From the NCBI GenBank assembly GCA_016647705.1, contig JAENRU010000432.1:1-64000 (forward strand): a stretch of 64,000 nt of DNA, read 5' to 3'. Within the stretch, counting starts at the first letter, position 1. Every line of letters starts with the position of its first letter. Positions 11,781 to 64,000 of this stretch are shown in pieces. The translations under genes were made by a program, and so were the position numbers. The DNA is from Eucommia ulmoides. Lineage: Eukaryota > Streptophyta > Magnoliopsida > Garryales > Eucommiaceae. The notes under the pieces were generated by a model. It ran no database searches. It had not been told where the DNA came from and saw only the letters and a list, made by a program, of their open reading frames with translations.

Positions 11781-12959
11781 TCTGTTTCGTCTTTTAGCCT
11801 CCGAGCTTGTTTATCCACCGTAACTTCAAACCGCTTTGGTTCGATCTCATCATTTTAGCTCCAGTTTCCTATCTTTTTGACCCACACACCTGAGTTATAC
11901 AAAAAAGTATAAATACTAATTAAAACATAATAAAAATAACTATAAACATATTCAAAAACTAACCAATTCAGATTGGAAATAGATAGGTTTTTCACACCTA
12001 TCAACACGCGATCGGTCTCACGTTGGCAGGAACTTTCCCATGACTTCCTCAGTTAGACATCGCTAGAGGACAAAATTAAGTGTGGCAGCCTGAAGCTAAA
12101 ATGGCTATAGACCACTTTCGATCACGTAGCCGCTGACGATGATGAGCGCATTATGTAGTGTTATGCCCGCACATATTTCCCGATATTGATCGGCACAATG
12201 TTGATGCAGCATAAATCGAATAATTTTGTCAAGTTAGGCTACGTACCACTGCTCTACGATTTGACTGGGTCGCAGATGTTAGGGCAATGTCACGCTGGCG
12301 GTGTTGTACTGGGAGCTATGCCAGGCATCATGTAAGGAGACATAAAAGGTGGTCAGACCCATCTTTTTGTTAGAGTGTTAAGCCTGAGAGCGGCTCCCGA
12401 GACTACATCATGTGTCTCTATCTATGACGGCTAATGGGATGGGTGACTTAGAGATCGGGGACTTCAGGTTCCCAGGCTCCTCTAGGGGGTCCTGATATGT
12501 GATTATATAACTAACTTGTATGCATTTCAAATATTTCATTTTATTTAGTAATATTTAGTGTTGGTCTTTGCGTATAGCTGGAACGTGTCTTTTAATCTGA
12601 ATAGCGAGCTGATGCATGTATTGGCCGTGTATCGGGATCAGTTAGATCGATTACGGGATGACGAGGTCAGTTATCCATTTACTTAAGATGTTACTTATGT
12701 CTATTTATTTATTTATTTTTATATTTATTATTTAATTAATTTGTTTGTATATTGTTTAGATAGGTGATCTGGATGCCTTATCCAGCTGGAGCGGCGGCGG
12801 CGGCCGACGAAGCGGATTTGCTCTTTCCAATTTGCTTTTTAAAAATTTCTGTATTTTTGTTTTGTTGATTTGAAGTATAATTTGGTTAAGGGTATTTTGA
12901 CTTAGCTTTTGAATATTGTGAGAAGTTTTTTAAAAAATAAAAAATTATAATTATTAATA

Positions 12960-13716
12960 ATGGTGTTTGTTCGGTGAATGTGTTGAGAAATTAAAAAAAT
13001 ATGGATATAGAGAATAAAGTTAAAATTACACTTATAAAATTATCAAACTATCTAAAAATAGATGATGTAATAGATTGAGTATTTTGAAAACTGTTACATA
13101 AAATCATTTTCAAGTTGTGTAGTTAAAAGAGTAATAGTTGAATTTTTGTTTTTGAAAACGAAACCAAACATCACCATGATATCTAAAATATGGAGATACC
13201 TTAGGAAGAATGAAAAGTGATTGGCTTCTTGGGTTGAATTTGGAAACAATTTTGTTCTGTTCTCATAAATTTGTTCTGAAAAATGATTTTTTTTTTGTTC
13301 TTGCATTTTTGGGAACATGGAAAAAAATAAATTAAATTTATAAACAATAAAATTATAATATTAAAAATAGGTAATGTTTTAGGTCGAGTATCATGAAAAA
13401 TTATTTTGTGAAAGTGTTTTTGAGTTGTGCTCAATGGCGGAGCTGCTTGGTGCCCAGTGTGGACTTAAGGCCCTGAACTTTTGAAATTTTTTATTATTAT
13501 CCCTATACTTTTAGAAAAAAAAATCAATAACAATCTCTTAAATTTCACATAAACTCCCTGAATTATAAAAATATCTGGATGAGAATTTACTCACCCCCAA
13601 CCAATTTTCTGGATCTACTTGTGTTATTGAAAGAGTAATAGTTGTATTTTTTGTGTGTTCAAACAGTATCTCAAAAAAGCAAACCAAACAAGGCCTTAAT
13701 CTTTTTGTTCTTCCAG
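12960..13716. mobile_element. MITE copies and a nested small element in the outer part of the left arm
   Basis: Copies of a 'GTTTGGT ... AAAAACGAAACCAAACA' type miniature element occur at about 12960-13170 and 13330-13690. The second is interrupted at about 13430-13615 by a roughly 190-bp piece beginning with TGGCGGAGCTGC. The same nested arrangement occurs reversed at 62890-63250 in the right arm, so it predates the duplication. I see no gene. Confidence 0.5.
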
Positions 13717-14340
13717 ATGCGAATTCACTGATTCTACTGGCTGCTGCTCAGATACTCTATGAGATCACCTCTAAGCATAATCCAACACGAATAAACTGAT
13801 TCAAAAGACGATTGAAGCCTGCAAGTTGAAGTGATACGACTCTGCCTATTGTTGAGAGCACAACCTTTTCATAGTCGTAGAACCTTCCAATCTCTTCTTG
13901 TTATTTTTCTTATGGGTTTGTTATTTTGTTTGTTGGTTTATATTCTTTCTTCTTTCTGTTTGTTGGTTGGAACCAATTGCTGTGAGGGTTTGCTGCACTA
14001 TTTGGGTGTGGTATATAAACTATGCCATTTGGGTGTGATATATAAACTATGTAACGAAACTTGATGGAAGAAAATAAGAAATGAATAGATCTTCTTCCTA
14101 ACTAATTCTCTCATTTCTCTTCTCATCTTTTCCCTCTGTTTATGCCTTTCTCTTCTCATCTTTTCCCTCTTTTTGTTTGTTTTTCTTGGAGCCAACACTC
14201 ACTCGAAGAGTGATTATCTCGACTAACCGTTGTAGTCGCAGGTTGGTCGTATCATGAAGTCTAATAAGAAACCTGAAAGTAAATCCCCACCCTATGATAA
14301 TCCTAAGAAGACGATGGAAAAAAATTGGCCTAAACTAGTA
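13717..14340 (+). pseudogene. Broken copy of the last exon of the unrecognised gene at 62437-64000
   Basis: After a pyrimidine tract and AG (13715-13716) the sequence reads ATGCGAATTCACTGATTCTA, matching the exon start ATGAGAATTCACCGATTCTA of the right-arm gene. SLILLAAAQILYEI-like coding follows with stops. A 423-bp solo LTR (13832-14254) cuts it. It resumes with TCTAATAAGAAACCTGAAAG and ends near ATGGAAAAAAATTGGCC. The right-arm exon continues for another 150 bases or so; here that part is lost. The upstream exon is absent because the inverted duplication ends before it. Confidence 0.75.
13832..14254. mobile_element. Small solo LTR (423 bp), TSD TGAAG
   Basis: It starts TGATACGAC and ends GTCGTATCA (TG...CA with 9-bp inverted termini) and is flanked by TGAAG at 13827-13831 and 14255-14259. 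The right arm has the site unfilled (AAGTTCAAGTCTAATGAG, reversed, in 62437-62798). The size suggests a copia-type LTR. The insertion happened after the arms were duplicated. Confidence 0.8.
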
Positions 14341-14621
14341 GTTTTTTTTTTTTTTTGGGTTGTAAATATTGTGGTAGGTTGTAGATGGGGGTGGGGGTGG
14401 GGGAACAGGGTTCCATTTTTGTATGATTAATTTGTAAGCTTGATGTGAATCCACATCCAATTTGTAGATTATTCCAGGAAGAAGCAATAGAAAATTCTGC
14501 TCTCTCTCTAGTTTTGATATGTGATGTCTCTCTTTGGAGTTCTGAATTCTAATATGATCTCTCTCTCACAATAATTAATGTTCTCTTTCTTTGCAGTTCT
14601 AATATGATCTCTCTCTCTTTT

Positions 14622-17427
14622 GTGGCAATGTTAATGGCGTTTTCCTCCACATTTGTCTGGTGATAAATTTAAGATTTAATTTTTAAAGTGTTTCCAAGAG
14701 AGTCGAACCTGGTTGACAAATAACTCTTCTTGATAGCTATTAGCATTAAGTAGAAGGAAACCAAATTTATAAATAAGAGAAAATTTAGAAAACTATAGAA
14801 AGAAATTAGGGAGAAAATTCGCTTATTCATTGATACAATTATAAGGGAGCAAACACTTTTAAATAGGAAACGAATAACACACGGTTACTAACCCTGGAAT
14901 CCATACGATGAATGAGTTTTCTAATTTATTCAAATCACTATTTTCCTAAATTATTCAATTTTCTAATAAATCCAATCCATAACAAAATTAACCTTAATTT
15001 ACTGACACTCCCCCTCTAGTTGATGCAAAGATATACATCATGCCCAACTTGCTCACTTGAAGCTCGAAGGGCTGTCTCAATAGTCCCTTTGTCAAATTAT
15101 TTGCAACTTGCTGTGTGGTGGGTACAAATGGAGTATAAATTATTCATTCTTCAAACTTTTCTTTTTATAAAGTGTCTGTTCTCAACACGTTTTGTCCTGT
15201 CTTGTATAATCGGATTATGAACAATGTTGATAGCCGCCTTATTTTCACAATACAACTTCATAGGAAGACTTACTGGTCTTTCAAGTTCTTCTAGAACCCG
15301 TTTTAGCCAAAGAATCTCACACACTCCTTGTGTCATTGATATGAATTCCGCCTCAACACTACTAGCAACAACACTACTTTTTTCTCCTCCAAGTGATTAG
15401 ATTGCCCCATAGAAATGCACAATATCCCGATGTTGACCTTCTATCAGTGATCAAACCTACCCAATCAACATCTGTATACACCTCAATTTATCTCTTCTCA
15501 TTTTTCTTGAAGAACAATTTTTTTCCTAGTGTGATTTTCAGATAACGAAAATTTCGATACATAGCTTCTATATGTTCTTCATACGAAGAATGCATAAATT
15601 GACTTACCATACTTACAGCGAAAGCAATTGCAGGACGTGTATGTGATAAGTAGATCAGTCTTCCAACTAGTCTTTGGTATCTTCTCGTGTCTACTGGGAC
15701 GCCATCTTTTACATCTCGAAATTTAGCATTAGCTTCTATTGGGGTGTTAGAAGGTGTGCAACCATTCATTATAGTTTCTCTCAAGAGATCTAGAATGTAC
15801 TTCCGTTGTGAAACTACAATGTCCTTTTTTGACCTTGCCACTTTCATTCTAAGGAAATACTTTAGTTGGCCCAAATCTTTAATCTCGAATTCCTTGGCTA
15901 GCCTCTACTTCAATCTGCTCATGTATTCTAAATCATCTCTAGTCAGAATTATATCATCTAAATAGACAATCAAAACAGAGATCTTGTCTTTGGTAGATTT
16001 GTTTGTGAAGAGAGTATGATCAGATTGTCTCTGCGTATATCCTTAACTCTTAATGAACTATTTAAATCTCTCGAAACAAGCTCTGGGAAACTGTTTAAGA
16101 CCATATAGAGACTTCTTTAGTTTTCATTCCTTGGTACCAAACTTCCCAGTAAATCTAGGTGAAGGCTCTATATAGACTTCCTCCTCTAAGTCTCTATTCA
16201 AAAAGACATTCTTCACATCCAACTGATTCAGAAGCCAAATAAAATTAGCAGCAACAGACAAGAGTACCCGAACTGTATTTAGCTTCGCCACTGGAGAAAA
16301 AATCTCAAAGTAGTTCACTCCATATGTCTGAGTGAAGTCTTTAGTTACAAGACGAGCCTTGTATCTTTCCAAAGATCTATATGAGTTGTACTTCACGGTA
16401 AATACCCATTTGCGACCAACAACAATCTTCCCATCAGGAAGATCCACTTTGTCCTAAGTAACATTATTCTCCAGAGCTCTCATCTCTTAAAAAATCGCTT
16501 CTTTCCACTTAGGAATATTTAGAGCCTCCTGGACACTATTAGGAATGACCACACTAGACATTTATGAAATGAAGGCACAATATGAAAATGAAATATTTTT
16601 GTAAAATACAAAATTTGACAAAGGGTGTTTGGTACAAGACCTAACACCTCTTCTGAGAGCAATGAGAAGATCAAGCTGACTAGACGAATTTGACTCAGAA
16701 TTACCTTGAAGAATCATTGACGAGTCATCATGTATTTGATGATCCAACCTCTGATTAGATTCTTGGTGGTGCTGTGGGATAATGCCTTTTTTTTTTTTTT
16801 TTTTTGTGTTAGATACTCCTTTGAATATACAAGACCTTTATACCATTTTACACACATATTTGTAGTTTCAATATTTTGATTTTGAGATGGCATTATCAAA
16901 GGTCGTTCATTATTAGGTTCAATATCTTCAACATTTAATTCATTCTTTTCCCCAGACTTTATATTTTCCATATCGTTTTCTTTCGGTAATTGGGTGTGAG
17001 AAACATCATCTTGAACAAATTCAAAATATGAACCATTTAAAAAATCATCTTCACTAGTGCTCTCTCCCTGAAGATGGGAATTGATGTAGTATGATTGTCT
17101 TTCAAAGAATGTGACATCCATAGACACAAACATTTTTTTGGAAATAGGATCAAAATATTTATAACCTCTATGATTTGTAGGATAGCCTACAAAAATACAT
17201 TTATGTGCCTTTGGATCAATCTTAGAACATCTAGGATCATGACTATGAACAAAGGCCACACTTCCAAAAAAAAAAAAAGGGAATATTTGTTGTGAGTCGA
17301 GTGGTGGGAAAACATTCGATGAAAAGTTTTATAGGTGTTTTAAAATTCAAAATTCTTGTAGGTAGCCTATTAACCAAATAAGTGGTTGTTAAAATAACTT
17401 CTCCCCAAAGATACTTAGGAACCTTAA
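14622..17427 (-). mobile_element. Truncated Ty1-copia retrotransposon (3' part)
   Basis: On the minus strand a copia pol region, cut off inside the integrase domain at 17427, is followed by a purine tract (CTAGAGGGGGAG) and an LTR starting TGTCAGTAAATT at 15007 that runs to about 14622. It is inserted in the left arm only: host sequence matching the right arm ends near 14620 and resumes near 18745. The truncation point abuts LTR copy 2 exactly. Confidence 0.75.
15100..17420 (-). pseudogene. Copia polyprotein fragment: integrase end, reverse transcriptase, RNase H
   Basis: In coding order on the minus strand: the integrase C-terminal region with KAHKCIFVGYPTNHRGYKYF (near 17200); RT start with GRKWVFTVKYN and RLVTKDFTQTYGVNYFEIFS (16447-16300) and QLDVKNVFLNRDLEEEVYIE (near 16190); the RT end with GQLKYFLRMKVARS (15874) and RLIYLSHTRPAIAFAVSMVS (near 15640); and RNase H with LYCENKAAINIVHNP (near 15250). 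The catalytic YVDD block near 15970 survives only in pieces. Stops and frame changes separate the parts, so it is dead. Confidence 0.8.
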
Positions 17428-17606
17428 TGTAAGACCCGATCTTACATGTACATAATTTTTAATTGCGTCTTAAAAATAATAATAATAATAATAATAATGG
17501 AGACTAGAGTGTCATTTAAATATCATATTTGAATTTTATGGGTAACTTTGATTTATAAAAAAATGATTTTAAGAATGTTGGGGGTTAGATGTATAATTAA
17601 AATAAT

Positions 17607-17643
<37 letters not shown>

Positions 17644-18740
17644 TATGTAAATGTATACGTATATATGTGAGTGTATATATATATATAATATTAAAATCTA
17701 TATAATAAATCAGGACTGGGATATTTACGGCCGTCGAATGAGGGACAAAACTCTAAATATTTTAACCGTTAGATCAAAATAAATCTATATATAAATATTA
17801 AAATTAAAATTAGGGTTTCCTCTCTCTCACGTGTGTCCATCGGCCATCTCTCTCTTCTTCATCAAAACCAACATCTCTTATTGTCGATCCATCACCGTGC
17901 ATCACCATCTCCGAGTGCATTCATCGTCGTTCTGTCGCCGTGAATCACCATCAGAGCGTCTTCGTTCCAGGTTCATCTCTCTCCTTCTCTCTCTCTCTGC
18001 CTCTCTATTTTTCAATTTGAGGGTTAAGGGATTCCACATCTGCTAGAGAAATTGGGGTTAAACCCTTTTCTCTCTTTCTTTCTCTCTATCTCATGTCTAC
18101 CACTTACTCTCACTCGTACTTTCTCTTTACAATCATCTTTCAACATTGATACCTTCTCTACTTCCAATAATCGTCATTGTCGTCGCCTTCATCTCTTCTC
18201 TTTTTCAGTCTCTCGCGATCCATTCCCTCTCAGCCTCCTTCGCCATCCCCTTGCCACCGCCATTGCCACCTCCGCTTCATTTTGTCATGATGCCATCGCC
18301 TCGCCATCGTCGCGTTCAATCTCTTCCTTGCTCCTCCGCCATTCCCTGCCGAACTCTTTCCCTCTCTCTACACATATCGATTCCTCTATCCATCACCCTC
18401 TCTATATCCTGGTACGTCCCAATCTGTGTTTTTCTATTTCAAAACCCTCTATTTTGACGATGGTCGAGGACGGTGAAGATCAACGATGGTTGGATTTGGA
18501 TAGAGATCCAACTATCACTTTTTTCTACTTTTATTTTGCCTATATTTTGATAGTTGTTCTTCAGTGACAAATTTTACGTTCCTTCTTAAAAATTTGTTCT
18601 TTTTTTGAGTGGGATTTATAGAGTTTCTAAAACGTTTTCACTCAAATATGTATTGTCTTTGACAGAGAAAAAGAGTTCGTGATAGATATGTTCATAATAT
18701 TTGATATATGCCCATGTGAATATATATGTTTATGTATATT
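17428..18740 (+). mobile_element. LTR copy 2: 5' part of the recurrent LTR family
   Basis: It begins TGTAAGACCCGATCTTACAT, close to the start of copy 4 (TGTAAGACCTGGATC) and copy 3 (TGTATAAGATCC). It contains (AAT)n at 17477-17500, (CA)n/(TA)n at 17609-17690, and a CT-rich tract at 17820-18450. The conserved 20-mer and minisatellite of the family are missing, so only the 5' portion is present. The right limit is set by where host homology to the other arm resumes (about 18745). Serine- and leucine-rich frames at 18052-18567 are products of the CT-rich tract. Confidence 0.55.
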
Positions 18741-19036
18741 TGAATAAATTCAATCTAAAAAATGGCACAAGGAGTGACCAGAGTACTTTGAAACAGTGCG
18801 TAAATATATTCATTATGTCATTTTCAAATTCGATAGATAAAAAAAATTGACTGAATATATATATTAAGGATCAAAAGAGCATATAAAAATTATTATCAAA
18901 TTGACTATTATATATTTTTCTCCATCAAAATCTTATGAAAATCACCTTCTATTTCTAATGACGAATAAAACCACAAAGAAGATCGATACTATTCTACCCA
19001 AACAAAGTAAATATTCTCTATCGGACATCCGCTCTT

Positions 19037-20124
19037 TCAATAGAAAAGAAGTGAACCGATGAACAATGCCAAAACCATCCTGATTCCCACTCTTTTCTTT
19101 CTGTCAAAATCCACCTTGAGAAACTGCAGAGTTTTTGTCAACATTTACAGTTAAATTCAACACCTATATCTCTATTGTTTTCTTTATATTTTAGAAAATG
19201 AAATATATAACGTTAAAATCAACGTCAAACATTGTGATTATAAAAATTTCCAAAAATTATATTCCACGTGACATTTTTTTTTTTAATTTTATAGTAAGGT
19301 GTGTCTGGGTCAATTTACGCACATCTTGACTAATCAATTCTCAGGGTAATCTTGAGGGCGCATTCTTCCACATCGATTTAGTGCATTTATGATTAAATTC
19401 ATAATTTAATTTTTGGATTGTTTTTCATGTGTCAAATGATTAAATTCATAATTTATACTTGACAAAAAAATTGTGCAGTTTCCCTTATCAATCGGACTAA
19501 TATCTCTTGGGTCCATATGACATGTTGATGTAGTGCATTATAACAAATTTTAAGAGGAAAACTTAAAATAATAATCACACGCATCGATTTAAAAATTGTA
19601 TGCAAATCCGTGAGACCGTTCTGATAAAATCAAATTAGTTAAATATCGAAACGGAAGCATAAAATTCATTATATTAGTAAAAAATTCTTACCCAACTCAG
19701 CTCGAGGGGAAGCAACTCTAATGAAAATTTCTTGGACTCCATTGATGACGTCACACATGTCAATGAGATCATCAAACCAAAGCAAACACCCACTCCCACC
19801 GTTTCTTATATCCAATAAGCCATGCACGAACAGTTCTTCAAGCATTCCCCTTCACATTCCTTCAGGCTCATGCTCTTGTTATACCAAGAATTTCTCGTGT
19901 CCGGCAATTTAACGTTGGAATATCTGGTAAACACATCTCCGGCGTTGTTCCGGCAATCCAACGTTGTCTTCCGAACACACCCATTTGACCAATCGGATTT
20001 TTCCCAGTCCTTTGGGTTTCTGGGTTCGAATTTGTCCAGGCATCTACAGATGGGGGAGTTGCCGGGGTTGCAAATTCCGTTGAGGCGACAGATATCGCCG
20101 GACAGCGTCACCGGCCGCTATTTA
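19037..20124 (-). pseudogene. Gene B remnant: S-domain receptor with internal deletions (left arm)
   Basis: On the minus strand, 20124-19692 holds the end of an S-domain exon: an EGF-like piece (GICNPGNSPICRC) and PAN-type cysteines (LKECEGECLKNCSCMAY). Compared with gene B' of the right arm, the signal peptide, lectin and S-locus domains are gone: the promoter-side sequence 'TAATTATAAATAGC' joins directly to a piece just before the EGF part. A second short deletion follows, and a third breaks the frame after SCMAY. Exon 2 (19123-19037) has a stop (GGF*) where B' reads GGSDG. It cannot make a receptor. Confidence 0.85.
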
Positions 20125-20321
20125 TAATTACATTTACTACCCTCTAATTATGCTCCACGTTTTATTTGAGTCTCAAAAACTATAAAAATTTAACAAATTT
20201 GCTTCAATTGTGCACAACCACCTAACTTCTTTTCCCAATTTAGTGGGATATCAGTTGAATTCTCATATGAATATGTCAATAATCTTATTAGTTTTTGACG
20301 TATCCCGGATTTTTAGAAAAA

Positions 20322-20403
<82 letters not shown>

Positions 20404-21191
20404 TTTTTAAAAATATTTAAAAAGGGATTTTTTTAAAAGCGCTGATTTTCTCGTAAATAACTTAAATCAATTTTAGAAAAATGAGTCGTCATCTAGTATT
20501 GAGTTTGAATGATGTGTTAGATCATTGGATTTTTTTTAAAATAATTTGAAAAATGTTTTAAATAAAAATTTGACTCCAAAAGCACGCCCAATCAAAATTT
20601 CGTTTTAAAGGTTCCGTAGAATTCTCATATGAATATGTCAATAATCTTGTTAGTTTTGTTTGTTTAATTATTGTCATTATTATTATTTTCTCTACCAAAA
20701 CCCTTTTTATATATATATATAATTATTTTGTATTTTATTTTTTATTTTATTTTATTCCATGAAAAATTATAATTTTGATAGTCATTAATGTGGTTCGCCA
20801 AAACTTAATTTTGATTTTCTATTTTAAATTCTGAAAATTATACCAATTTGTAAAATATATTAATAAATGTCTTTATTATCTATTTTTTGGGGGATCAACA
20901 GGGATTATCCCAAATTGTGAAATTAAAGTTAATTTAGTATCTCACATCAGCCAATTAGCACTAAAAATTATGTTTTTTGGTAAAAAAAAAAAAAAGTTAT
21001 TTAAAAGCAAGAAAAAATTGATCCAAAAATATGTCTAACTCCACCAAAATAAAATTAGTATGCACAAAATAAATCTCCAAAAAACATTTCTCCAGGATCA
21101 GTACCTTATGCTCTGAAAGATCAGTACAAAAGTTTTATTCCAATTGATTATTATTTTTTTTTATTTTTGTATAAAGAACGAAAAAAGATTT
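20125..21191. other. Intergenic region between genes A and B, left arm
   Basis: AT-rich and without a gene. It holds a (TA)n run at 20328-20399. The sequence at 20880-20905 (GGGATCAACAGGGATTATCC) is the empty site for the TRIM element found in the right arm. The rest matches 58048-59517 in reverse. Confidence 0.6.
20328..20399. repeat. (TA)n microsatellite, about 70 bp
   Basis: Pure TA dinucleotides. The corresponding place in the right arm (near 59283) has only a few TA units, so the run expanded in this arm or collapsed in the other. Confidence 0.9.
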
Positions 21192-31722
<10,531 letters not shown>

Positions 31723-51169: not shown

Positions 51170-54100
51170 TGACTTGCATTTTTCTTTTACTGGGTACAGG
51201 ACCCTCAGACAGGAAAACACTTTAGAACCGATCATAAAGTTGGACGCCTCTTTGAGCTTTCTCACCTCCAAGTCCTATCCATACCATCACCAAACCAATT
51301 AGCCGCATCCATCCCAACACTCTCACTTGTGGAATTGTGGCACTCTCGGTTAGGTCACACTTCTTCCAGTCGTCTACGTTATCTTATTTCTAGTGGTCAG
51401 TTAGGGTCATTTCAGCATGAGTCTTTTTATTGTATTCATTGTCAACTTGTAAAACAATCAGTTTTACCTTTTAATGAGAGTCAATCTATTTCCCTTGCAC
51501 TTTTTGATTCAGTACATTCTGATGTTTGACGACATTTTTCTTATGTATCAATGGGTGGTGCTCGCTATTTTATTATATTTGTGGATGACTATTCTCGTTA
51601 TACGCGGTTGTTTCTTATGAAAAGCAGATTTGAACTCTTTCAAATATATTATGATTTTTCTTCTATGGTTTAAACTTAATTCTCTTAGAATATCAAAGTC
51701 TTTCGTTCAGATTATGCAATGGAATACAAAAACCCTACTTTTCTAAACCTACTTCACAAAAATGGCACGCTCCTCCACCGCTCGTGCCTTGGAACCTCCA
51801 AACAAAATGGACGAGCTGAACGCAAACATAGACACATTCTTGACATTGTTTGTGCTCTACTCATTTTTTCATCATGTTCTGAGCATTTCTGCGGCGATGT
51901 TGCCTTAACTGTAGTGTATACAATCAATCGTATCTCTTCCGCCACAGTCCAGAATCAATCCCCATTCGAGCGCTTTTTTGGTAAACCTCCTGATTACTCT
52001 GAACTCAAAGTCTTTGGTTGCGCTTGTTTTGTTCTTTTCAAACCACATGAACATAACAAATTGGAACCAAGGTCTCACCTGTGTTATTTTATTGGATATG
52101 GTATTGAACATAAGGGGTATCGATGCTAGGATCTTATTTCTAAAATTTTTCGTATCTCTCATCATGTCATTTTTTGGGAACATCGAATGTTCTCTTCCTT
52201 ACGGTCATTTGTCATGTCAACCATCACTAAATCCAAATTCTTTACTAATCTATCTATTGAGTTATTTCTTGATAATTCAATTTCAGGTACTACTGAGTCC
52301 ACATAAGAATCACTAGCTAATCTCACCCCTTCAGTTCCAGAACCACCAGCTGACCTCAACTATCCAGACCTAGCTCCAGTTCCAAAACCACCAACTGACC
52401 TCACCCCTCCGACTCAATCGATCGTGCCTGCTGATATCCCTATGTCTGATGAGTCTACACCGACTCCCTCTGAGAGCCATCCTCCAGATCACTCCCGCAA
52501 ATCTACCAAGGTAACTCATTGCCCTTCTTATCTTGTTGATTATCATTGTTTTTCCACTATACTTCATTTGCATAAGTCTCAATCCTATAAAGAGGCTAGT
52601 ATCAATCCTCTTCGGCAAAAAGCAATGGACGAAAAACTTCAAGCCCTAACTAAAACTCATACCTGAGATATTGTTGATCTGCTTCCTAGAAAAACTCATA
52701 TTGGGTGCAAATTGGTATTTAAGATCAAGACATTTTATGATGACTCTGTTGAATGATATAAAACCCGACTTGTTGCCAATGGATTTGCTCAAGATTATAG
52801 CATTGACTATGAAGAGGTATTTTCTCCAGTGGCGAGGCTTACATCTGTCCATACATTTATTGTCGTCGTCGCCATTCAAAAATGGACTCTCTTTCAAATG
52901 GATGTCAAAAATGCATTTCTCAATGACGATCTTCTTAAGGAAGTTTATATGCATACCCTTCCTGGCCTGAATGCCCATCGAAATAAAGTTTGTCACATTC
53001 GTCGTGCCCCATATAGTTTGAAACAAGCTCCACATGCCTGGTTCACCAAATTCAGCACTACCATTCACCCGTTTTGGTTTACACCAAGTACTCATGATTC
53101 AACTCTATTTATTCGTCATACTGTTAACAATATTATCCTTCTTTTATTGTACGTAGTTGACATGGTTATTATTGAAGATGATCAACGTGGTATTTCTAAA
53201 CTCAAAAAGTTTCTCAGTGGACAATTCGAAATGAAAGATCTTGGCATGCTCATCTATTTTCTTAGCCTCGAAGTCTCACCTGGTTTAGATGCATATTTTA
53301 TCTCTCAGGCCAAATATGTCTCGGATCTCCTTTCCAAGGTTAGGATCACTGACTCAACCACTGTCACTACTCTTCTTGAGCCAAACATCAGACTTTCTCC
53401 ACTCGATGGTTTACCTTTACAAGATGTCACTATATATCGCCAACTAGTTGGAAGTCTTATATATCTCACTGTCACTCGCCCTGACATTACCTATGGTTTT
53501 CATCAGATCAGTCAGTTCTTGTCCGCTCCTCGAACCACCCATTACTTGGTTGTTCTTCACATTCTTCGATATGTTAAGGGTATTTTATTTCATGGACTTC
53601 ATTTTTCAGCACAATCTACTCCCATCTTACAAGCTTATCCTGATGCCGATTGGGCTAGAAACCCCACCGACAGACGTTCAACCACTGATTATCATTTCTT
53701 TTTAGGTAATTCTCTCATTTTCTGGCATAATAAGAAACAAATTATGGTTGTTCACTCCAGTACTGAAGTTGAATATCATGTCATGGCTGATGCAACTCAA
53801 GAACTTCTCTGACTTCGATAGTTACTCACTGACATTGGTATCTTTTCTCCTACTACCACTACCGTACACTATGACAATATGAGTGCTATTTAGATCGCTC
53901 ATAATGATGTCTTCTACGAGAGTACAAAACATATCAAGACTGATTGCCACTTCATCCGTTATCACATTCTCTATAATACGGTTCGTCTACAATCCGTCAG
54001 TTCAACCGATTAGACAACAAACATTTTCAGTAGGTCTCATCCACTCAGACGCTTTCACTCTCTAGTTTTTAAACTCAAGTTCACCTTCTACTTACCGCCT

Positions 54101-54277
54101 TGAATTTGTGAGGGGATGTTAATGTCTTATATGGGCTTGACCTACTCGGCCCATTAGGGCAAAACCCTAACCCCCACTTGCCTTATAAATAGTTGTATAC
54201 ATCATTGTATTATATGTATCTTTTTCTCATAATATCAATACATTGTTCATGTCTCCCACTTCTCAATTATCTTAACA
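51170..54277 (+). mobile_element. 3' half of the copia element in gene A' intron 1 (right arm)
   Basis: Begins abruptly inside the pol region and ends with a 161-bp LTR at 54117-54277, followed by ATTAA. Flanking intron sequence after the LTR (TACTTCAAAGAAGTTATC) is the reverse complement of the sequence beside the left-arm copia (25015-25045), so it is the same insertion. Coding pieces: ELWHSRLGHTSSSRLRYL; integrase with SKQNGRAERKHRHILDIV; RT with LFQMDVKNAFLNDDLLKEVY and LYVVDMVII (Val for the first Asp); RNase H with YPDADWARNPTDRRSTTDYH. Stops occur throughout. Confidence 0.85.
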
Positions 54278-56221
54278 ATTAAAATTGTTTATTTTTTTCT
54301 ACTTCAAAGAAGTTATCAAATGGTGCCTAACTTTTTTTTTTTTTTCAATTTTAATTTTAGTAGTTGAAGCTCTTTGAAACGTGATTTGGTGACAATTACA
54401 GTGACTAGTATCAGTTGAATTTAACCAATTATTTTGCCTGGATGAATTCAGTTAACAATTTATAGTTGAATTATAGAAGAAGATGATTAAATCTTTGAAA
54501 AAAATGACTTAACAAGTAGAGTTTTATTTATTTTTATTATTATTTTTTTTTAAAATAAGAACGCAAAATGGAGATGTGGATGTTGAATTTAACATTCAAA
54601 TATTCATTAAACATATTGCAGTTTATGAAGGTCGATCCAATCGGAAGAAAAGAGTAGCAATCATGATAGCCTTGGTGTTGCTCGTTGGTTTGCTTCTGAT
54701 GTGCCTGACCTCCATTTTGTATTTTCGGAAACGGAAAAAATCTCATTCGAATGCCCGAAATAGTAAGTTGATGGAGTTCAAAATAGTGTTTGTTTAATGT
54801 TTTTGTTCCCGCATTGTTGTTTATGTTCCATGTTTTTTGTGGGAATAGAGAAACAAATATGGAAACAAAAACATAATTGCAAAACAAACGCTACTTTTAA
54901 AATTGAGTAATTTAAAAAAAAATGAACAACGTTACCAAACAGTCCTTAAGGACGCATTAATATAGACGCCCTTTATTTAGTGTTTTTGTTTCCATTGGGA
55001 ATAAAAAAACTTATATTTTTTATTTCTCATATTTAAGTTTTTATTCTATGTTTTTTAACAAAAAAGAAAAACATAAAATCGAGAACAAAAACACTAAACG
55101 AAGGACCATTTTTGTTCCATGTTTTTAAATTTGCAGGAAGGGTGAGTCCCGATTTCAAAATAGATCACACCAATCAAACTCAAACTGAAGATCTAGAATT
55201 TCCGTTGTTTCACTTATCTAGAATCGTAAAAGCTACCAATAATTTCTCCATTGACAATAAGCTTGGAGAAGGTGGATTTGAACATGTTTACAAGGTAAAC
55301 AAAATCAAAATAAAATTAAAAAGGCGACGTTTGTTTAGTTCTCCAACTTTATAATGAAACAAAGTTACCTCTTAACTTTACACATACAGTCTAAAGGTTA
55401 ATAGCACTCTTACCTCTCGTGATTTGACCAAATTGCACTTTATTTCCTGTAGTATTTTCATAGACACTTATCCCAAAATCATATTATAACTGCTTAGGGT
55501 TTATTTGAAGATGGGCGAGAAATAGCAGTGAAAAGGCTCTCGAAAGCTTCAAGACAAGGACTAGTCGAGTTTAAGAATGAATTAATATGCATTTCAAGGC
55601 ATCAACATCGAAATCTCGTAAAGCTTTTGGGATTTTGCATCGAAGAAGAAGAAGATGAAATGATATTGATTTACGAATACATGCCCAATAAAAGGCTCGA
55701 CTTGCATATATTTGGTATGAAATTTCTCTTAAATACTCAAATATTTCAGTATCTAAGGTCATGTTTGGTTTATAATCAAAAAGCAGTTTTTTGAAAATTC
55801 CGAAAACTTATTTGCATTATTTTTTTAATTTTTTTTTTTTGAAAATAGATAAAAAACAAGGCAAAGCACTTGATTGGCCACAAAGATTTCACATTATCAA
55901 TGGAATTGCTCGGGGTCGTCTCTATCTTCATCAAGATTCGAGGCCTAGAATCATTCACAGAGATCTCAAAGCCACTAACATTCTTCTAGATTTGGAATTG
56001 AACTCAAAGATTTCGGATTTTGGACTCACTGGAGGCTTTGGAGGAAATGAGATGGGCGCAAATACAAGCAAAGTGGTTAGAACATAGTAAGAATCTAATG
56101 CCCCATTTGTTTAGCGTTTTTATTCGCAAAAAACTTGGAACAAAAACAAAAATATTGAAACACAATTTTTGTTCCGCACCCATATTTGTAAAACAATTTT
56201 TTTTTATTTTTGGGGGGGGGG

Positions 56222-56492
56222 AGTGGTAATTGGACTTTTCTCCTTGTAGTTTAACTAAATTACACTTTACACTTGTAGTATTTTTGCCATCACTTACTCT
56301 CTTGTGGTTTAGGTTAAAATAGAGGTAGTCATGGGCCCAAGGGCCTGCCCAACCTACCAAGCCCGACCCTATTTGTTTAAGGCTTGGGTTTTAATTTTAA
56401 GCCCATGGGCAAGGCTTGGGATTTGATTTTGAGACCCGATCAAATTTAGGGTCGGGTTTGGATAAGGCCAATTTTTTTTAGATGACTACTAA

Positions 56493-56568
<76 letters not shown>

Positions 56569-57005
56569 TCGTGCTTGAACTTGATTTATTTTTGTAGGGT
56601 CAAACTTAGGCATGAAAGTAGAGTCCGATCATAGGGCCGGCCCGGGTTAGGGCCTAGTATTTTTTTGTAATATCCTGTTTAAAGTTCGGCCCATGACCAC
56701 CCCTAGGTTATAGTGCAACATTACATTTTCTATTAAAGTTAACAGTCAAATATATATTAATTGTACCCCTGGTGGGGTGGGGTAATATTCGGTTGCAATA
56801 TTTTTTTCCCTTTTATTTTTTCTCTTGGATCGGGTTGGATCAGTTCAGGTTCGGTCTACAATTCTGTTAAATATTTAATAGTTACACTTAAGTCTGAAAC
56901 ACAACTGATCCTGAAGGGGAATGGGTGGAAAAAATAGCATGTCGTTTCAATGGACATAGGGGTGACTAAAATACCACTGGAGTATAAAGTGTAATTAAGC
57001 CCTTT
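56222..57005. mobile_element. Non-autonomous element in A' intron 5
   Basis: Right-arm counterpart of 22250-23150, bounded by TTACACTTTACACTTGTAG and GAGTATAAAGTGTAATTAAG. It contains a (TA)n run at 56496-56566 that is much shorter (about 20 bp, near 22830) in the left arm. Confidence 0.5.
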
Positions 57006-57407
57006 TTCTTATTCTTAGTTTTCTAAGAATAAAAACATTAAAAGAAAGTCACCTACATAATAATATTCATTAAATTCGCCTCTATTACCTATGAATACGT
57101 AGCTTATTAGCCTTATATTCTTTTGAAGCGTTATATGTCTCCAGAGTATGCAATTGGTGGGATTTTCTCAACAAAATCAGATGTTTTCAGCTTTGGTGTA
57201 ATAGTGCTTGAGATTGTTAGTGGGAAGAGAAACAAAGAATTCTTCCATCAAGAACACCGACACAGCCTTGTTGGACATGTAAGTAATTTTCTACTGGAAT
57301 TCTACACAAAGGTAATGATATTTCTAAAAAAAAACAAAAGGTTAAAAGAAAAGGTTGCGTTTGGACGTATGATTTGGTAAATTCATGGAATTTTAAAATT
57401 TAGAATT

Positions 57408-57690
57408 TAAGGGCTTGTTTGGTTTTGGTTTCGGAAGCAGAAAAAATGAAAAATTCAAATGTTACTCTTTTGATCGCAGATTTCAAAAATAATTTCAGAC
57501 AACAATTTTCACAATATTTAGATTATCACATCACCTAGTTTTAATGCCATACTTTTGTTATTTTATAAATTTAATAATAATTTTTTTCTCTATATCTATA
57601 TTTTTTTTATTTTTCTGCTACATAAACCGAGCAAACATTTTCAATATCATTTTTTTCTCAACCAATCACATCATTTTAATAAAAAAAAAT
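57408..57690. mobile_element. MITE in A' intron 6
   Basis: Same element and position as 21530-21825 in gene A. It begins GGGCTTGTTTGGTTTTGGTT and is AT-rich with no coding capacity. Confidence 0.55.
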
Positions 57691-58358
57691 TCCAAAAAAA
57701 CTAATCCTAAAAGACTACGGTGTTCAAATTCATAGGCATGGAGACTTTTCAACGAGGATAGGGCCTCAGAACTGATTGATCCAACGGTGGAGAACTCATC
57801 TCTTCTATCAGAAGAAGCGGTAAGATCAATTCATGCGGCTCTGCTATGCATTCAACAACGCCCAGAGGACAGGCCAAGCATGGCATCGGTGGTACTAATG
57901 TTGGGTAGCAAGGGCTCGTGGCCATTGCCAAAGCAGCCTGGTTTATTCACTGAAAGGAGTTTTGTTGAAGGAGAGTATTCTTGGAGCATCAAACCAACAA
58001 GTTCTTCAATCAATGAAATCATCATTACCGAAATGGATCCTCGGTAGATTTTTTTTTTCTTTTTTCATATAGAAAAGAAGTAATCAATTGGAATAAAATT
58101 TCAGTACTGATCTTTTAGATCATAAGGTATTGATCCTTTTACAGGTGGATATGTCATTTTTGGATATTTATTTTGTGCAAACCAATTTTATTTTGGTGGA
58201 GTTAGAAATATTTTTGGATCAATTTTTTCTTGCTTTTAAATAACTTTCTTTTTTCTTTCTTTTTTTTTGTTTTTTTACCAAAAAACATAATTTTTAGTGC
58301 TAATTGGTTGATGTGAGATACTATAATTAACTTTAATTTCACAATTTGGGATAATCCC

Positions 58359-58966: not shown

Positions 58967-59013
<47 letters not shown>

Positions 59014-59502
59014 TAAAAAACAAAACTAACAAGATTATTGACATATTCATATGAGAATTCTACGGAACCTTTAAAACAAAATTTGGTTGAGCCGTGCTTT
59101 TGGAGTCAAAATTTTACTTAAGTTATTTTTCAAATTATTTTAAAAAACAATCTAATAATCTAGCACAACATTTAAACTCAATACTAGGTGACGACGCCTT
59201 TTTTTAAAATTGTCTTAACTTATTTACAAGAAAATCAGCCTTTTTTTTTAAAAAAAAATTCCTCTTTAAATATTTAAAAATAATATATATATAAAATTTG
59301 TTTATTTATTTTTTAAATATCCGGGATACGTCAAAAACTAATAAGATTATTGACATATTCATATGAGAATTCTACTGATATCCCACTAAATTGGGAAAAG
59401 GAGTTAGGTGGTTGTGCACAATTGAAGCAAATTTGTTAAATTTTTATAGTTTTTGAGACTCAAATAAAACGTGGAGTATAATTAAAGGGTAGTAAATGTA
59501 AT
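58772..59502. other. Upstream region of gene B'
   Basis: AT-rich, with an (AAT)n run at 58977-59013. It matches the left arm 20125-20880 in reverse. No gene. Confidence 0.5.
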
Positions 59503-59510
59503 TATAAATA
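59503..59510 (+). promoter_or_regulatory. TATA box of gene B'
   Basis: TATAAATA, kept in the left-arm remnant too (reversed near 20117-20124). Transcription would be expected to start 25-35 bp downstream (about 59535), which places the first ATG (59518) upstream of it and favours the ATG at 59545. Another weaker TATAATTA lies at 59478. Confidence 0.45.
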
Positions 59511-59544
59511 GCTGCCCATGCACAGTCCAAACACAGAGTGTCTA

Positions 59545-61481
59545 ATGGACTATCATTGCGCCGTTACCGGAATTCTTCTCTTCTCCTTTACGATCTTCTT
59601 CTCCGTTGCCGGATATAACATCACCACCACCCGATTCATCGGCGACGGCGAGACCATTGTTTCCGACAATGGGTACTTCGAAATGGGTTTCTTCAGTCCG
59701 GCAAGTTCCGTGAACCGTTACCTCGGAATCTGGTATAAAAATTTACCGATCCGGACGGTGGTCTGGGTCGCCAACACAGAAATGCCAATCGCCGGTAAAA
59801 AATCTGGCGTCGCCAAAGTCATCCTCCCCGGGATTATCGCCGTCGTGGATAGCAGCAGCGACGACAAAGTCATGTGGTCTTCCAACATATCGTCGGCCAC
59901 ATCTTCCCGCAATCCGATCGCGGAGCTTTTGGATTCCGGCAATCTGGTGGTGAGAGACGCCGGCGAAACTAACCCGGAGAATTTCTTCTGGCAGAGCTTC
60001 GATTATCCCGGCGACACGCTTCTGCCGGGGATGAAGCTCGGAAAAAACTTCGTCACCGGCCGGGAAGTTCACCTCACATCATGGCGGAGCAACGACGATC
60101 CGTACCCTGGCGATTTCACCTTCCACTGCGATCCGACCGGGTACCCGCAAAACGTACTGGAAAAAGGACCGGTCGAGGTTTTCCGATCAGGTCCGTGGAA
60201 TGGAATAGGGTTCAGTGGAATCCCAAGCCTGAAAAAAAACCCGGTTTTTAAATTCAAAGTGATCATCAGAAGAGAAGAGGTATACAGTAGGTTTGAGCTT
60301 CTCAACAGCTCCGGCTATTCAAAGCTGACGTTGACGCCGGCCGGCGATATCCGGCGCCAGAACTGGGTCGAATCGGAAAAAGACTGGAAAATCTTCCTCA
60401 CTTCTCCGGCGGACTCCTGCGATAATTACAAGCTCTGCGGCGGCAACGGAATCTGCAACCCCGGCAACTCCCCCATCTGTAGATGCCCGGATAAATTCGA
60501 ACCCAGAAAATCAAAGGACTGGGAAAAATCCGATTGGTCAAATGGGTGTGTTCGGAAGACGGCGTTGGATTGCCGGAACAACGCTGGAGATGTGTTTACC
60601 AGATATTCCGGCGTTAAAATGCCGGACACGAGAAATTCTTGGCATAACAAGGGGATGAGCCTCAAGGAATGTGAAGGGACGTGCTTGAAGAATTGTTCAT
60701 GCATGGCTTATTCAAGTCTAGATGTAAGAAAAGGTGGGAGTGGGTGTTTGCTCTGGTTTGATGATCTCATTGACATGCGTGACGTCATCAATGGAGTCCA
60801 AGAAATTTTCATTAGAGTTGCTTCCCCTCAAGCTGAGTTGGGTAAGAATTATTTTATAAATATAATTAATTTTGTGCTTCCATTTCAATATTATAACTCA
60901 TTTGATTTTATCAGACCAATCTCTTAGATCTGTATACAGGTTCGAAACTGACACGTTTGATTATTATTTTAAGACTTTCTTCTAAGAATTGATTAAAATG
61001 CACTACATCAACATGTTACTTGGACCCAAGAGGTGTTATTCCTCTTAGCAATGGGAGCTATTTCTTTTACTTGTCAATCAGAATTAGACTCTAATGGGGA
61101 ATACTTTAAGAATTAAATTTTGAATTTAATCTTAAATATACCAGATCGATGTGAAGAAGTGCACCCTTAACATCGTTCAGAGACATGATTAATCGAGGTG
61201 TACAGTGCGTGAGTTACCTCCAACATACCTTACTGTAAAACCTAAAATAAAAACATCATGGTATATAATTTTTGAAAATTTTCATAATCAAAGTTATTAG
61301 TTTGGATTTAACCAAATATATTTCATTTTTCAAAATAGGGGAAAAAAATAGAGATATTGGTGTTGAATTTAACAGTAAATTGACAAATTCTGCAGCTTCT
61401 CAAGGTGGATCCGACGGGAAGAAAAGAGATGGAATCAAGATGGTCTTGGCATTGTTCATCGGCTCACTTCTTTTCTACTGA
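59545..61481 (+). CDS. Gene B': S-domain receptor-like protein without kinase
   Basis: Exons 59545-60841 and 61396-61481, with GT-AG borders and phase 1 as in gene A, give 460 aa (469 from the upstream ATG at 59518). Seen: a signal peptide (LLFSFTIFFSVAG), bulb lectin (WVANTEMPIAGKKSG), S-locus glycoprotein domain (SGPWNGIGFSG), EGF-like part (GICNPGNSPICRCPDKFEPR) and PAN cysteines (LKECEGTCLKNCSCMAYSS). Exon 2, which in gene A encodes the membrane segment and then continues, ends here with a stop: SQGGSDGKKRDGIKMVLALF plus IGSLLFY. The protein thus ends in a short hydrophobic tail and lacks a kinase. It may be membrane-anchored, possibly through GPI, or secreted. No kinase exons follow downstream. 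The ectodomain is free of stops, so it may be functional. Confidence 0.8.
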
Positions 61482-61776
61482 AAGATCAATCTTTTTTATT
61501 TTATTTTTTTTCGTTATTAGAAATAGAAGGTGATTTTCATAAGATTTTGACGGAGAGAATTAGATTGTAGTCAGTTTGATAATAATTTTTATATGCACTT
61601 TTGATCTTGATGTACTGTTTTAAAGAACTCTGGTAACTCCCTATGCCGTTTTAGATAGCGTGTTTGAAGTTTATCTGTTTTTTTCCTCCTCGATAGACAA
61701 CTATTGCAAAATTTTGTTTGCATTTTTCTCGTCAATTATATATGTGTGTGTATTTATATAAAAATTAAAATAGAAA
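61482..61776. other. Region downstream of gene B'
   Basis: No gene. 61500-61680 pairs with 18745-18990 in the left arm. Confidence 0.5.
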
Positions 61777-61847
61777 TGGAGATGCGGGGTATTGATCCCC
61801 CTATCTCGCATGCTAAGCGAACGCTCTACCATCTGAGCTACATCCCC
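61777..61847 (-). tRNA. tRNA-Ala (AGC), possibly degenerate
   Basis: On the minus strand GGGGATGTAGCTCAGATGGT begins a cloverleaf: the acceptor GGGGATG pairs with CATCTCC (one G-U), discriminator A, D-arm GCTC/GAGC, anticodon loop TTAGCAT (AGC, alanine). It differs from the usual plant sequence: the variable loop is about two bases short, the T-stem has GGGGG opposite CCCCG (one mismatch), and the T-loop is ATCAATA. It is nuclear type, without an intron. It lies in the right arm, and the left arm lacks it because transposons occupy that place. Confidence 0.85.
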
Positions 61848-62436
61848 TTGATGGCTTCCTAAATTTTGTCTTATTGATAAACTTGGTTTCGTTCTACCTA
61901 ATGCATAATCATTGCAATACCTAAAACTACAACAGAGCGATCTTATCTAGCATGTCTCCCTAATATAAGATCTACTGTTTAAAATCCCTTTCCCCACCCA
62001 AAAAAAAATACTACAAAGAAAGAGAGATACAGACATTATATGAACTACACAGAGAGAGAGCGCATTTTAGAACTACAAAGAAGAGAGAACAGAAATTATT
62101 GAGAGAGAGAGATCATATCAGAATTCAGAGGAAGAGTGGGAAGTCCGAGCTAGGCCTGATCGGGGCTGAAGTCGGCGCCTTGCCTGCTTGACCGGGCGAT
62201 TTTTTTCCGGAGAATCTACTCCAGAGAGAGAGAGAGCAGAATTTTCTATTGCTTCTTCCTGGAATAATCTACAAATTGGGTGTGGATGATTCCACACCAG
62301 TCTTACAAATTAAGCATACAATGGAACCCTGTTCCCCTTCCCCCATCCCCCCATCTCTACAACCCACCACACTATTTACAAAAAAAAAAAAAACACTACC
62401 AGTTTCTAGTTAAATTTAACCGCGAAATCAAACGAA
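61848..62436. other. 3' flank of the gene at 62437, with GA-rich repeats
   Basis: Several GAGAGAGAG tracts (62025-62110, 62223-62240) and a probable 3' untranslated region. The left arm (14338-14620) matches in reverse but lacks the block with CCGAGCTAGGCCTGATCGGG (about 62140-62220). Confidence 0.5.
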
Positions 62437-64000
62437 TCATTTCCCTGATCTGCTCCAATCCATGCCCATAAACGTTCTCGGTTTCTCCTGACTTTCCCGA
62501 TTCTCCTCGTTCACCAACCGTTGCTTTTTCCTAACATTAGAATTGTAAAGCTTTGATTCTGAAACAGCGGTGTTTAATGGCGACTTGATTGATCGAGGAG
62601 TAGACCAATTTTTCTCCATCATCATCATCATCTTCTTAGAATTATCAAGGGGTGGGGATTTGCTTTCGGGTTTCTCATTAGACTTGAACTTGCAGGCTTC
62701 AATCGGCTTTTGAAACGGTTTATTTGGTGTTGGATTATGCTTGGAGGCGATCTCATAGAGTGTCTTAGCGGCAGCCAGTAGAATCGGTGAATTCTCATCT
62801 GAAAGAACAAAAAGATTAAGGCCCTGTTTGGTTTGCTTTTTTAACATACTGTTTTCAGTTTTAAAAAACACAAAAAATACAACTATTACTCTTTCAACAA
62901 CACAACCAGCGGGGATCCAGAAAATTGGTTGGGGAGGGTAAGTTCTCATCCAAATATTTTTATAATTCATGGGGCTTATGTAAAATTTTAAGAGATTGTT
63001 ATTGATTTTTGCTAAAAAAAAAGGGATAATAGTGAAAATTTTCAAAAGTTCAGGGCCCTGAATCCATATTGGGCACCAAGCAGCTCCGCCACTAAACACA
63101 ACTCAAAAATACTTTCACAAAACAATTTTCATAATACTCGATCTATCACATTATCTATTTTTCATATCATATTTTATTTTTTATAAATTTAATTTTAATT
63201 TTCTGGTTCCTAAATTTTCCCTGTTCCCAACAATGTAGGAACATAAAAAATCAGTTTTCAGAACAAATTTATGAGAACAGAACAAAATTGTTCCCAAAAT
63301 TCATGTTTATGATCCAAGAAGCCAATCATTTTCCACGCTTCATAAGGTATCTTCATATTCTAGATATCATCATGGTGTTGTTTAGTTTCGTTTTCAAAAA
63401 CAAAAATTCAACTATTACTCTTCTAACAACACAACTCGAAAGCGATTTTGTTGAACATTTTTCAGAATACTAATAGATTTATAATTTTGTAAGTGTAATT
63501 TTACCTTTATTCTCTATGTCCATATTTTTTTCACCAAACAAACGTCATTATTAATAATTATATTTTTCCTAATTTTCAAATTTGAAAAGAAAAAAAAAAT
63601 CTCAAAATATTCAAAAACTAAATCAGAATACCCTTAACCAAATTATACTTCAAAAAAAAAAACTTACCTGAAGGAGACGAGGAATCCAAGCACCTCTCAC
63701 CAGGCACCGAGCCTTTTTCACATCCCGCCAAGCTCATAGATGAGGATGGAACATTTTCACTATCTAAAGGCAAACTATTTGGACCTCTAGATGGAACCAA
63801 TTTGTGATCATAAATAAGTGTTTCCAATTTCAAATCAAAACCAGAATATACCGGTGGTGTATTGAGATTGTTCTCAACTTTAGCCCATCTAGCTTGACAT
63901 CCACTCCTACTTGTACTCAATTTGACAGCATCAGAACTAGATTTACAATGCCCATGTGACCAAGAAAAAGATGACAAACCACGTCGGCCAAACACAACCT
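62437..64000 (-). CDS. Unrecognised plant protein, C-terminal two exons (partial at window edge)
   Basis: The last exon 62798-62437 (AG acceptor at 62799-62800; stop at 62437) and the preceding exon, from the window edge to 63668 with donor GTAAG, join in phase (...LDSSSPS|DENSPILLAAAKTLYEIA...). About 230 residues are visible. They are serine-rich and polar, with a short helical block SPILLAAAKTLYEIASKH, then basic stretches (FQKPIEACKFKSNEK, VRKKQRLVNEENRE) and a conserved-looking end FMGMDWSRSGK. The Lys/Arg-rich low-complexity character suggests a nuclear protein, but I do not recognise the family. The 3' exon exists broken in the left arm. The intron (62799-63667) holds MITEs. Confidence 0.7.
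62820..63600. mobile_element. MITEs in the last intron of the right-edge gene
   Basis: Phrases GGCCCTGTTTGGTTTGCTTT and CAACTATTACTCTT.CAACA recur at 62821-62905 and 63370-63435. A roughly 190-bp element ending GCAGCTCCGCCACTAAAC (63075-63098) is nested in the first. They mirror 12960-13690, so they predate the duplication. Confidence 0.5.

What the first reader, a model, noticed from the sequence alone, without database searches (positions are those of the whole stretch)
12860..63655. Large imperfect inverted duplication of an S-domain receptor cluster
The arms 12860-27533 and 51170-63655 are collinear in opposite orientation: unrecognised gene, gene B, gene A, then a copia element in intron 1 of A. 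Each arm kept a different gene: A is intact on the left, B' on the right. S-domain receptor clusters evolve by such duplications, and reciprocal loss would leave a head-to-head pair of diverged receptors. The spacer (27.5-51.2 kb) is nearly all transposons.
Basis: seen in the sequence. Interest (0 to 1): 0.75.

Follow-up and report, generated by a model that had tools for sequence, protein, structure and literature searches.

The report
Two modules of a receptor-gene cluster
The two mirror-image stretches are real, but they are two of many copies of a repeating unit (one receptor-kinase gene plus one shortened receptor gene) in a large, shuffled plant receptor cluster, rather than one duplication that folded back on itself and then lost different genes.

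Summary
The antidiagonal is real: 12861-27537 and 63662-51166 are collinear in opposite orientation (9,988 aligned columns, 89.3% identity without gaps). Left keeps gene A, a complete-looking 837-aa S-domain receptor kinase; right keeps B', a 460-aa S-domain protein ending in a membrane segment, no kinase.

The proposed history fails. The window opens contig C64 (1.19 Mb) of a 947-Mb genome. A-B units recur in both orientations along 480 kb of C64 and on C101, C139, C140. Among copies held, trees group left with C101:107-128 kb and right with C101:81 kb or C139. The left B deletion lies at the same place in C101:127 kb. B's kinase-less stop is in 9 of 9 B copies whose exon 2 was held. The right arm ends at 51166 against a dispersed repeat.

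The left arm is 97-99% identical to parts of C101 and C140, where neighbouring A/B copies run the same way; a misjoin in the repeats at 43-51 kb is not excluded. New member of a known kind; interest low to moderate.

The parts
12861..27537 (-). left arm: one A-B unit (genes on minus strand; exon 1 of A lies beyond it)
   Evidence: self-BLASTN chain; 97-99% identical copies on C101 and C140
51166..63662 (+). right arm: another A-B unit (genes on plus strand)
   Evidence: relatives C139:22777-29198 (92.6-93.2%) and C64:221 and 244 kb (93 and 95%)
30426..31722 (-). gene A exon 1: signal-like N terminus, B_lectin, S_locus_glycop, PAN_2
   Evidence: open frame, Pfam, splice model
24642..24782 (-). 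gene A exon 2: transmembrane segment
24113..24270 (-). gene A exon 3
23693..23909 (-). gene A exon 4 (AVKRL lysine region)
   Evidence: motif recalled
23326..23563 (-). gene A exon 5 (HRDLK, DFG)
   Evidence: motifs recalled
21973..22123 (-). gene A exon 6
21192..21503 (-). gene A exon 7 with stop codon
   Evidence: DUF3403 at C terminus
18916..20082 (-). gene B remnant, left: last third of exon 1 (20082-19612) and exon 2 region; about the first 930 bp of exon 1 missing
54541..58048 (+). gene A' remnant, right: homologues of exons 2 to 7, no exon 1, one base fewer in exon 6
59545..60841 (+). gene B' exon 1: signal-like N terminus, B_lectin, S_locus_glycop, PAN_2
   Evidence: Pfam; splice model
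61396..61481 (+). gene B' exon 2: short membrane tail, stop TGA (no kinase)
25058..29791 (.). copia-type element in intron 1 of A, left; LTR pieces 25058-25220 and 29629-29791 differ by 15.3%
51166..54277 (.). matching copia-type element, right, cut at 51166
35065..40413 (.). young copia element with target duplication ACAAC; absent at the matching place of C140 (clean empty site seen) and C101
41172..42765 (.). 400-bp tandem repeat, 4 copies; further pieces of it to 49.2 kb; C64 and C140 part company at 43630
49250..51169 (.). dispersed repeat of about 1.9 kb, taken for an LTR because copies occur in pairs 7-8 kb apart; abuts the right arm
12861..14618 (.). unnamed conserved stretch of the unit, left (no gene shown)
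62051..63662 (.). unnamed conserved stretch of the unit, right (no gene shown)

Best explanation
The arms are two members of a family of repeated units in a large S-domain receptor cluster. A unit carries gene A, a seven-exon S-domain receptor-like kinase with an old copia element in intron 1, and some 8-21 kb downstream gene B, a two-exon S-domain receptor-like protein with a membrane tail and no kinase. Shown: such units recur in both orientations along about 480 kb of contig C64 and on C101, C139 and C140; among the copies held the arms are not closest relatives of each other; 11 of 12 B exon-1 regions examined are broken or cut while B' is open; gene A looks complete. Inferred: the cluster grew by repeated unequal exchange and inversion among units and their transposons, each unit decaying on its own, so that an intact A here and an open B' there is what chance and selection left, not reciprocal loss after one inverted duplication. 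Inferred function: A signals as a lectin-like surface receptor kinase; B', if expressed, is a kinase-less membrane partner or decoy of A-type receptors.
For: Copy maps (capped: 40 candidates scored per search): exon 1 of A has 14 rows of at least 1,200 bp at 86% or more, the window's own included, 8 of them on C64 with both signs; exon 1 of B has 20 rows at 90% or more, the window's two included, 15 of 915 bp or more and 5 with only the last third; kinase blocks. Ranks: for block 54582-56165 the left arm is 8th by score of 10 other full-length matches; for 12861-13832 C64:106388 is 90% (782 of 972 bp) and the right arm 80%. Trees: left copies join C101:113.7 kb (support 100/100) and C101:127 kb (95/90); right joins C101:80.7 kb (100/98) and C139 (100/99). 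The deletion in left B lies at the same place in C101:19 kb and C101:127 kb, and in C140 with nine more bases missing. TGA after the membrane segment in 9 of 9 B copies whose exon 2 was held, reached in frame in 6 of 9. Gene A: 837 aa, six introns all GT-AG, expected domains over their cut-offs. The intron-1 copia LTR pieces differ by 15.3% on the left and the copia parts of the two arms by 14.1%, so the element is about as old as the split of the units or older.
Against: C64:298.9 kb has a similar but not identical B deletion (22-27 bp differ) and does not group with the left arm in the B tree, where four of eight inner branches are weak. The LTR pair of the C101:75 unit differs by 10.8%, less than the 15.3% of the left one, which is noisy for a single old insertion. 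The window join itself could be an assembly error. No expression data; gene models rest on sequence alone.
Confidence: 0.85

Rival explanations
1. One inverted duplication produced the two arms and reciprocal loss then left A on one side and B' on the other.
For: Continuous antidiagonal and one open gene per arm.
Against: Closer relatives of each arm elsewhere; left B deletion at the same place in C101:127 kb; right A' lacks exon 1 because homology stops at a dispersed repeat.
Confidence: 0.06
2. The units are real but the inverted join in C64 is an assembly error: the first about 43 kb of C64 were attached in the wrong orientation through repeats.
For: C64 1344-35074 is 97-99% identical to C140:1420-35192 and C101:4450-38241. 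On C101 exon 1 of A at 7.7, 75 and 107 kb runs the same way in all three, and on C140 the next B-type copy runs with its A. C64 and C140 part at 43630, among repeats, and C101 has its contig end there. Of 40 places scored (3,357 candidates) only the window itself spans the 51166 junction. C64 and C140 both begin at the same homologous base.
Against: A-type copies in both orientations occur repeatedly along C64, so inversion is normal for this cluster as assembled; the 5.3-kb copia at 35065 is absent from C101 and C140, so C64 is a different molecule or copy.
Confidence: 0.3
3. The arms are two haplotypes of one locus joined head to head.
For: Position at a contig end; three near-identical copies of the left arm in the assembly show that haplotypes or recent copies were kept apart.
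Against: Arms differ by about 11% without gaps and by large indels, while the near-identical copies differ by 1-3% over long stretches and 0.5% over one 2.5-kb piece; the arms fall in different clades.
Confidence: 0.04

Closest known systems
S-domain (G-type lectin) receptor-like kinases, SD-1 type (type name recalled); solved relatives SRK8 (6kyw) and SRK9 (5gyy)
   Same: Gene A: B_lectin, S_locus_glycop, PAN_2, membrane segment, kinase, DUF3403; ectodomain best match SRK8, E 3.9e-107. Tandem clusters with partial copies and pseudogenes are usual: 72 of 144 rice genes are tandem duplicates (PMC7971086, passages seen).
   Different: Nothing outside the family was seen in gene A. The old copia element in intron 1 is shared by several units of this cluster.
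[quoted passage not shown]
   Same: B' has the typical S-domain order without kinase; such proteins are called ubiquitous in land plants (PMC3616866, abstract and passages seen).
   Different: B' ends in a short membrane segment from a second exon and sits in a repeated unit with a full receptor kinase.
SRK/SLG pair of the Brassica S locus, class II
   Same: Full kinase plus kinase-less S-domain gene nearby. BrSLG-325 has two exons, and in two class II haplotypes (three genomes) SLG lies downstream of SRK at 11.5-26.9 kb (PMC8709392, passages seen). A membrane-anchored SLG product in a class II haplotype is named in the title of a work listed among the references of PMC3616866 (title only).
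   Different: Many units per contig, B copies mostly broken, no SCR-like ligand gene recognised (inconclusive), no evidence on self-incompatibility; species unknown.

Membership tests
SD-1 S-domain receptor-like kinase (gene A) | B_lectin, S_locus_glycop and PAN domains followed by a kinase | tested here: met
   Pfam scan of the spliced model
SD-1 S-domain receptor-like kinase (gene A) | single membrane segment between ectodomain and kinase | tested here: met
   exon 2, mean hydropathy 2.78 over 18 residues; no trained predictor was run
SD-1 S-domain receptor-like kinase (gene A) | kinase residues (AVK, HRDLK, DFG, SPE) | tested here: met
   read by eye; the motifs are recalled
S-domain receptor-like protein (gene B') | S-domain order B_lectin, SLG, PAN without kinase | tested here: met
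   the first kinase exons after B' lie at 69-78 kb and belong to another copy
S-domain receptor-like protein (gene B') | expressed, secreted or membrane-bound protein | not testable with these tools
   no RNA or protein data; tail hydropathy only 1.27 over 18 residues
Brassica-type self-incompatibility locus | linked small cysteine-rich ligand gene (SCR/SP11) | tested here: inconclusive
   25 cysteine-rich frames in the window against 1-7 in ten mononucleotide shuffles; by eye about 16 of 25 lie in GT-rich repeats or in the S-domain; the other frames were not pursued
Brassica-type self-incompatibility locus | haplotype-specific polymorphism co-segregating with rejection | not testable with these tools
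   needs crosses and population data
single two-arm inverted duplication | arms are each other's closest relatives | tested here: not met
   on the copies held or scored

The most novel reading that the evidence does not exclude
The repeating unit is a working pair, a receptor kinase and its kinase-less membrane partner, amplified together as in SRK/SLG but outside a known S locus; B' is the copy that selection kept, acting as co-receptor or decoy for A-type receptors of the cluster.
Probability: 0.12. Interest if true: 0.6.

Novelty: new member of a known kind. Interest (0 to 1): 0.3.

Why it matters
It corrects a tempting story: an antidiagonal in one window looks like a single inverted duplication with reciprocal loss, but the rest of the genome shows a many-copy cluster in which two units of opposite sign would look like that. 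The cluster is useful as a case of a receptor kinase and a kinase-less S-domain protein multiplied together, with one B copy still open and showing a hint of constraint: 10 synonymous and 6 non-synonymous changes on its branch, binomial p 0.0008-0.004 against no constraint; the broken C139 copy has 6 and 7, p 0.05-0.13. Numbers are small, one outgroup was used, and the copy was picked because its frame is open.

Tried and rejected
Reciprocal loss after one inverted duplication: rejected on the trees, the shared deletion and the shared stop of B. Arms as alleles: rejected on divergence. B as a receptor kinase with distant exons: searched with a receptor-kinase protein and with A exons on C64 to 114 kb; the first kinase exons after B' lie at 69-78 kb in another copy. 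SCR-like ligand: nothing convincing, inconclusive. The unnamed stretch: no Pfam match at E up to 5 for its 221-aa right-arm frame. tRNA-Ala at 61777: a member of a dispersed tRNA family, not followed further. Literature: 'G-type lectin' with 'inverted duplication' and 'receptor kinase' gave 0 papers; that is one search of one open-access library and no claim of absence in print. Rows left out before counts: matches under 500 bp or at 97% or less, under 400 bp or at 85% or less; C139 is not in the kinase tree because it lacks exons 3 to 5.
Full report
WHERE IT IS. The window is C64:1-64000 of a plant genome of 946,670,599 bases in 391 contigs (that it is a plant is inferred from the genes). It starts at the very end of contig C64, which is 1,187,500 bases long.

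THE OBSERVATION. BLASTN of the window against itself shows the antidiagonal. A chain of 11 blocks runs from 12861/63662 to 27537/51166: 9,988 columns, 89.3% identity without gaps, 9,814 of 14,677 left bases and 9,681 of 12,497 right bases aligned. Identity with gaps is 79-88% in the seven large blocks. Most of the unaligned left part is at 14.6-18.9 kb, where by eye two frames look copia-like (not scanned).

GENE A (left, minus strand). Seven exons join with six GT-AG introns into 837 aa (one search was a first try with wrong boundaries). Pfam finds B_lectin, S_locus_glycop, PAN_2, kinase and DUF3403 above their cut-offs. Intron 1 holds a copia-type element whose LTR pieces differ by 15.3%; in the C101:75 unit they differ by 10.8%.

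GENE A' (right). Exons 2 to 7 have homologues at 54541-58048, but exon 1 is missing and exon 6 has one base fewer. The homology between the arms stops at 51166. There a repeat of about 1.9 kb ends (49250-51169): 32 other places match it over 1.6 kb or more at 86-92%, in at least five cases as pairs 7-8 kb apart, which is why I take it for an LTR (40 of 9,388 candidates scored). With the junction as query, only the window itself of 40 places scored spans it (357 candidates).

GENE B. On the right, B' has exon 1 (59545-60841) and exon 2 (61396-61481): 460 aa with the three S-domain parts and a short, moderately hydrophobic tail, then TGA. On the left only the last third of exon 1 and the exon 2 region remain. 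Exon 2 with its TGA was found in 9 of 9 B copies whose exon 2 I held; three of these nine are near-identical copies of the left unit, and three of the nine have a shifted frame before the stop. So the kinase-less form is most likely ancestral to the cluster. Of 12 B exon-1 regions examined, B' alone has an unbroken full-length frame; five of the 12 are of the cut kind. Of six A exon-1 regions, four are unbroken, three of them near-identical. Ka/Ks (own script, Nei-Gojobori): exon 1 of A left against C101:75 0.46, against C101:107 0.29, against B' 0.38; B' against C139 in three pieces 0.58, 0.19 and 0.17; kinase exons 4, 5 and 7 left against right 0.35, 0.77 and 0.44. Changes polarised with one outgroup (C64:317 kb): B' branch 10 synonymous and 6 non-synonymous, C139 branch 6 and 7, two ambiguous. 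Against no constraint the B' counts have p 0.0008-0.004 depending on transition bias, the C139 branch 0.05-0.13. Small numbers; suggestive only.

THE REST OF THE CLUSTER. Exon 1 of A has 14 rows of at least 1,200 bp at 86% or more: eight on C64 (30, 238, 287, 337, 367, 403, 439 and 477 kb) with both signs, three on C101, one each on C140, C139 and C10 (40 of 82 candidates scored, so a lower bound). Exon 1 of B has 20 rows at 90% or more (40 of 78 scored). The kinase blocks tell the same. Outside the window lies a true head-to-head inverted pair of A-type pieces, C64:69092-72172 against 76483-73366, 89.9% over 3,161 columns; matches at C64:207-215, C64:306-314, C139:34-42 and C101:136-144 kb have the same order and signs.

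WHO IS RELATED TO WHOM. Left: window 1344-35074 is 97-99% identical to C140 and C101. Next for exon 1 of A come C101:106.7 kb (97%), C64:286.5 kb (95%) and C64:366.9 kb (94%). Right: C139:22777-29198 at 92.6-93.2%; C64:243.8 kb at 95% and C64:221 kb at 93% in the kinase block, where the left arm (92%) is 8th by score of 10; in block 56600-58700 the best is C64:223 kb at 92% and the left arm covers 1.76 of 2.1 kb at 89%. B' is 97% identical to C139 and to C8:79.897 Mb; the latter lies about 26 kb from the end of C8 and is 99.5% identical to C139 over the 1,901 bp fetched. Trees of 8 and 11 rows put left and right in different groups; in the B tree four of eight inner branches are open. The left B deletion lies at the same place in C101:19 kb and C101:127 kb, and in C140 with nine more bases missing; in C64:299 kb it differs by 22-27 bp.

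ORIENTATION. On C101 exon 1 of A at 7.7, 75 and 107 kb runs the same way each time; on C140 the next B-type copy (61 kb) runs the same way as its A. Of these three contigs only C64 shows an inverted neighbour for the left-type unit. C64 and C140 part at window 43630 among repeats, and C101 has its contig end there. A real inversion and a misjoin both fit. A copia at 35065-40413 with target duplication ACAAC is in C64 only; C140 has the clean empty site.

LITERATURE. PMC3616866 (abstract and passages seen): S-domain kinases are among the most rapidly expanding receptor families, and kinase-less S-domain proteins are ubiquitous. PMC7971086 (passages seen): half of the rice family are tandem duplicates, with partial copies and pseudogenes. 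PMC8709392 (passages seen): Brassica class II S locus with a two-exon SLG downstream of SRK. Seven paper searches were made.

VERDICT. The inverted pair exists in the assembly; as a biological event it is best read as two units of opposite sign in a many-copy receptor cluster. Ordinary in kind, with one point worth a look: a receptor kinase and a kinase-less membrane S-domain protein multiplied together, one B copy still open.

Noticed in passing
L029 and L030, that is C64:69092-72172 and 73366-76483 (outside the window): A true head-to-head inverted pair of A-type gene pieces, 89.9% identical arms about 1.2 kb apart; matches with the same order and signs occur at four other places on C64, C139 and C101.
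   Followed up: partly
window 35065-40413: A copia element with LTRs 1.7% apart and target duplication ACAAC that is absent at the matching place of two near-identical contigs: a polymorphic or copy-specific insertion.
   Followed up: yes
window 1344-35074 versus C101 and C140: Three copies of the left arm at 97-99% identity in one assembly; too many for two alleles of one locus in a diploid unless one is a recent extra copy.
   Followed up: partly
C8:79894538-79898668 (L038 is part): A copy of the right arm's B end lies about 26 kb from the end of the chromosome-size contig C8, which suggests where the cluster belongs; yet no C8 row for the A exons appears in the capped lists, although C139 has some.
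   Followed up: partly
window 61777-61847, minus strand: A tRNA-Ala (AGC) gene, one of a dispersed family, in the right arm and in the C8 copy (95%) but not in the left arm or the matching part of C139.
   Followed up: partly
window 6357-6536 and 46100-46400: GT-rich stretches that give long cysteine-rich reading frames in several frames, probably repeat artefacts.
   Followed up: no
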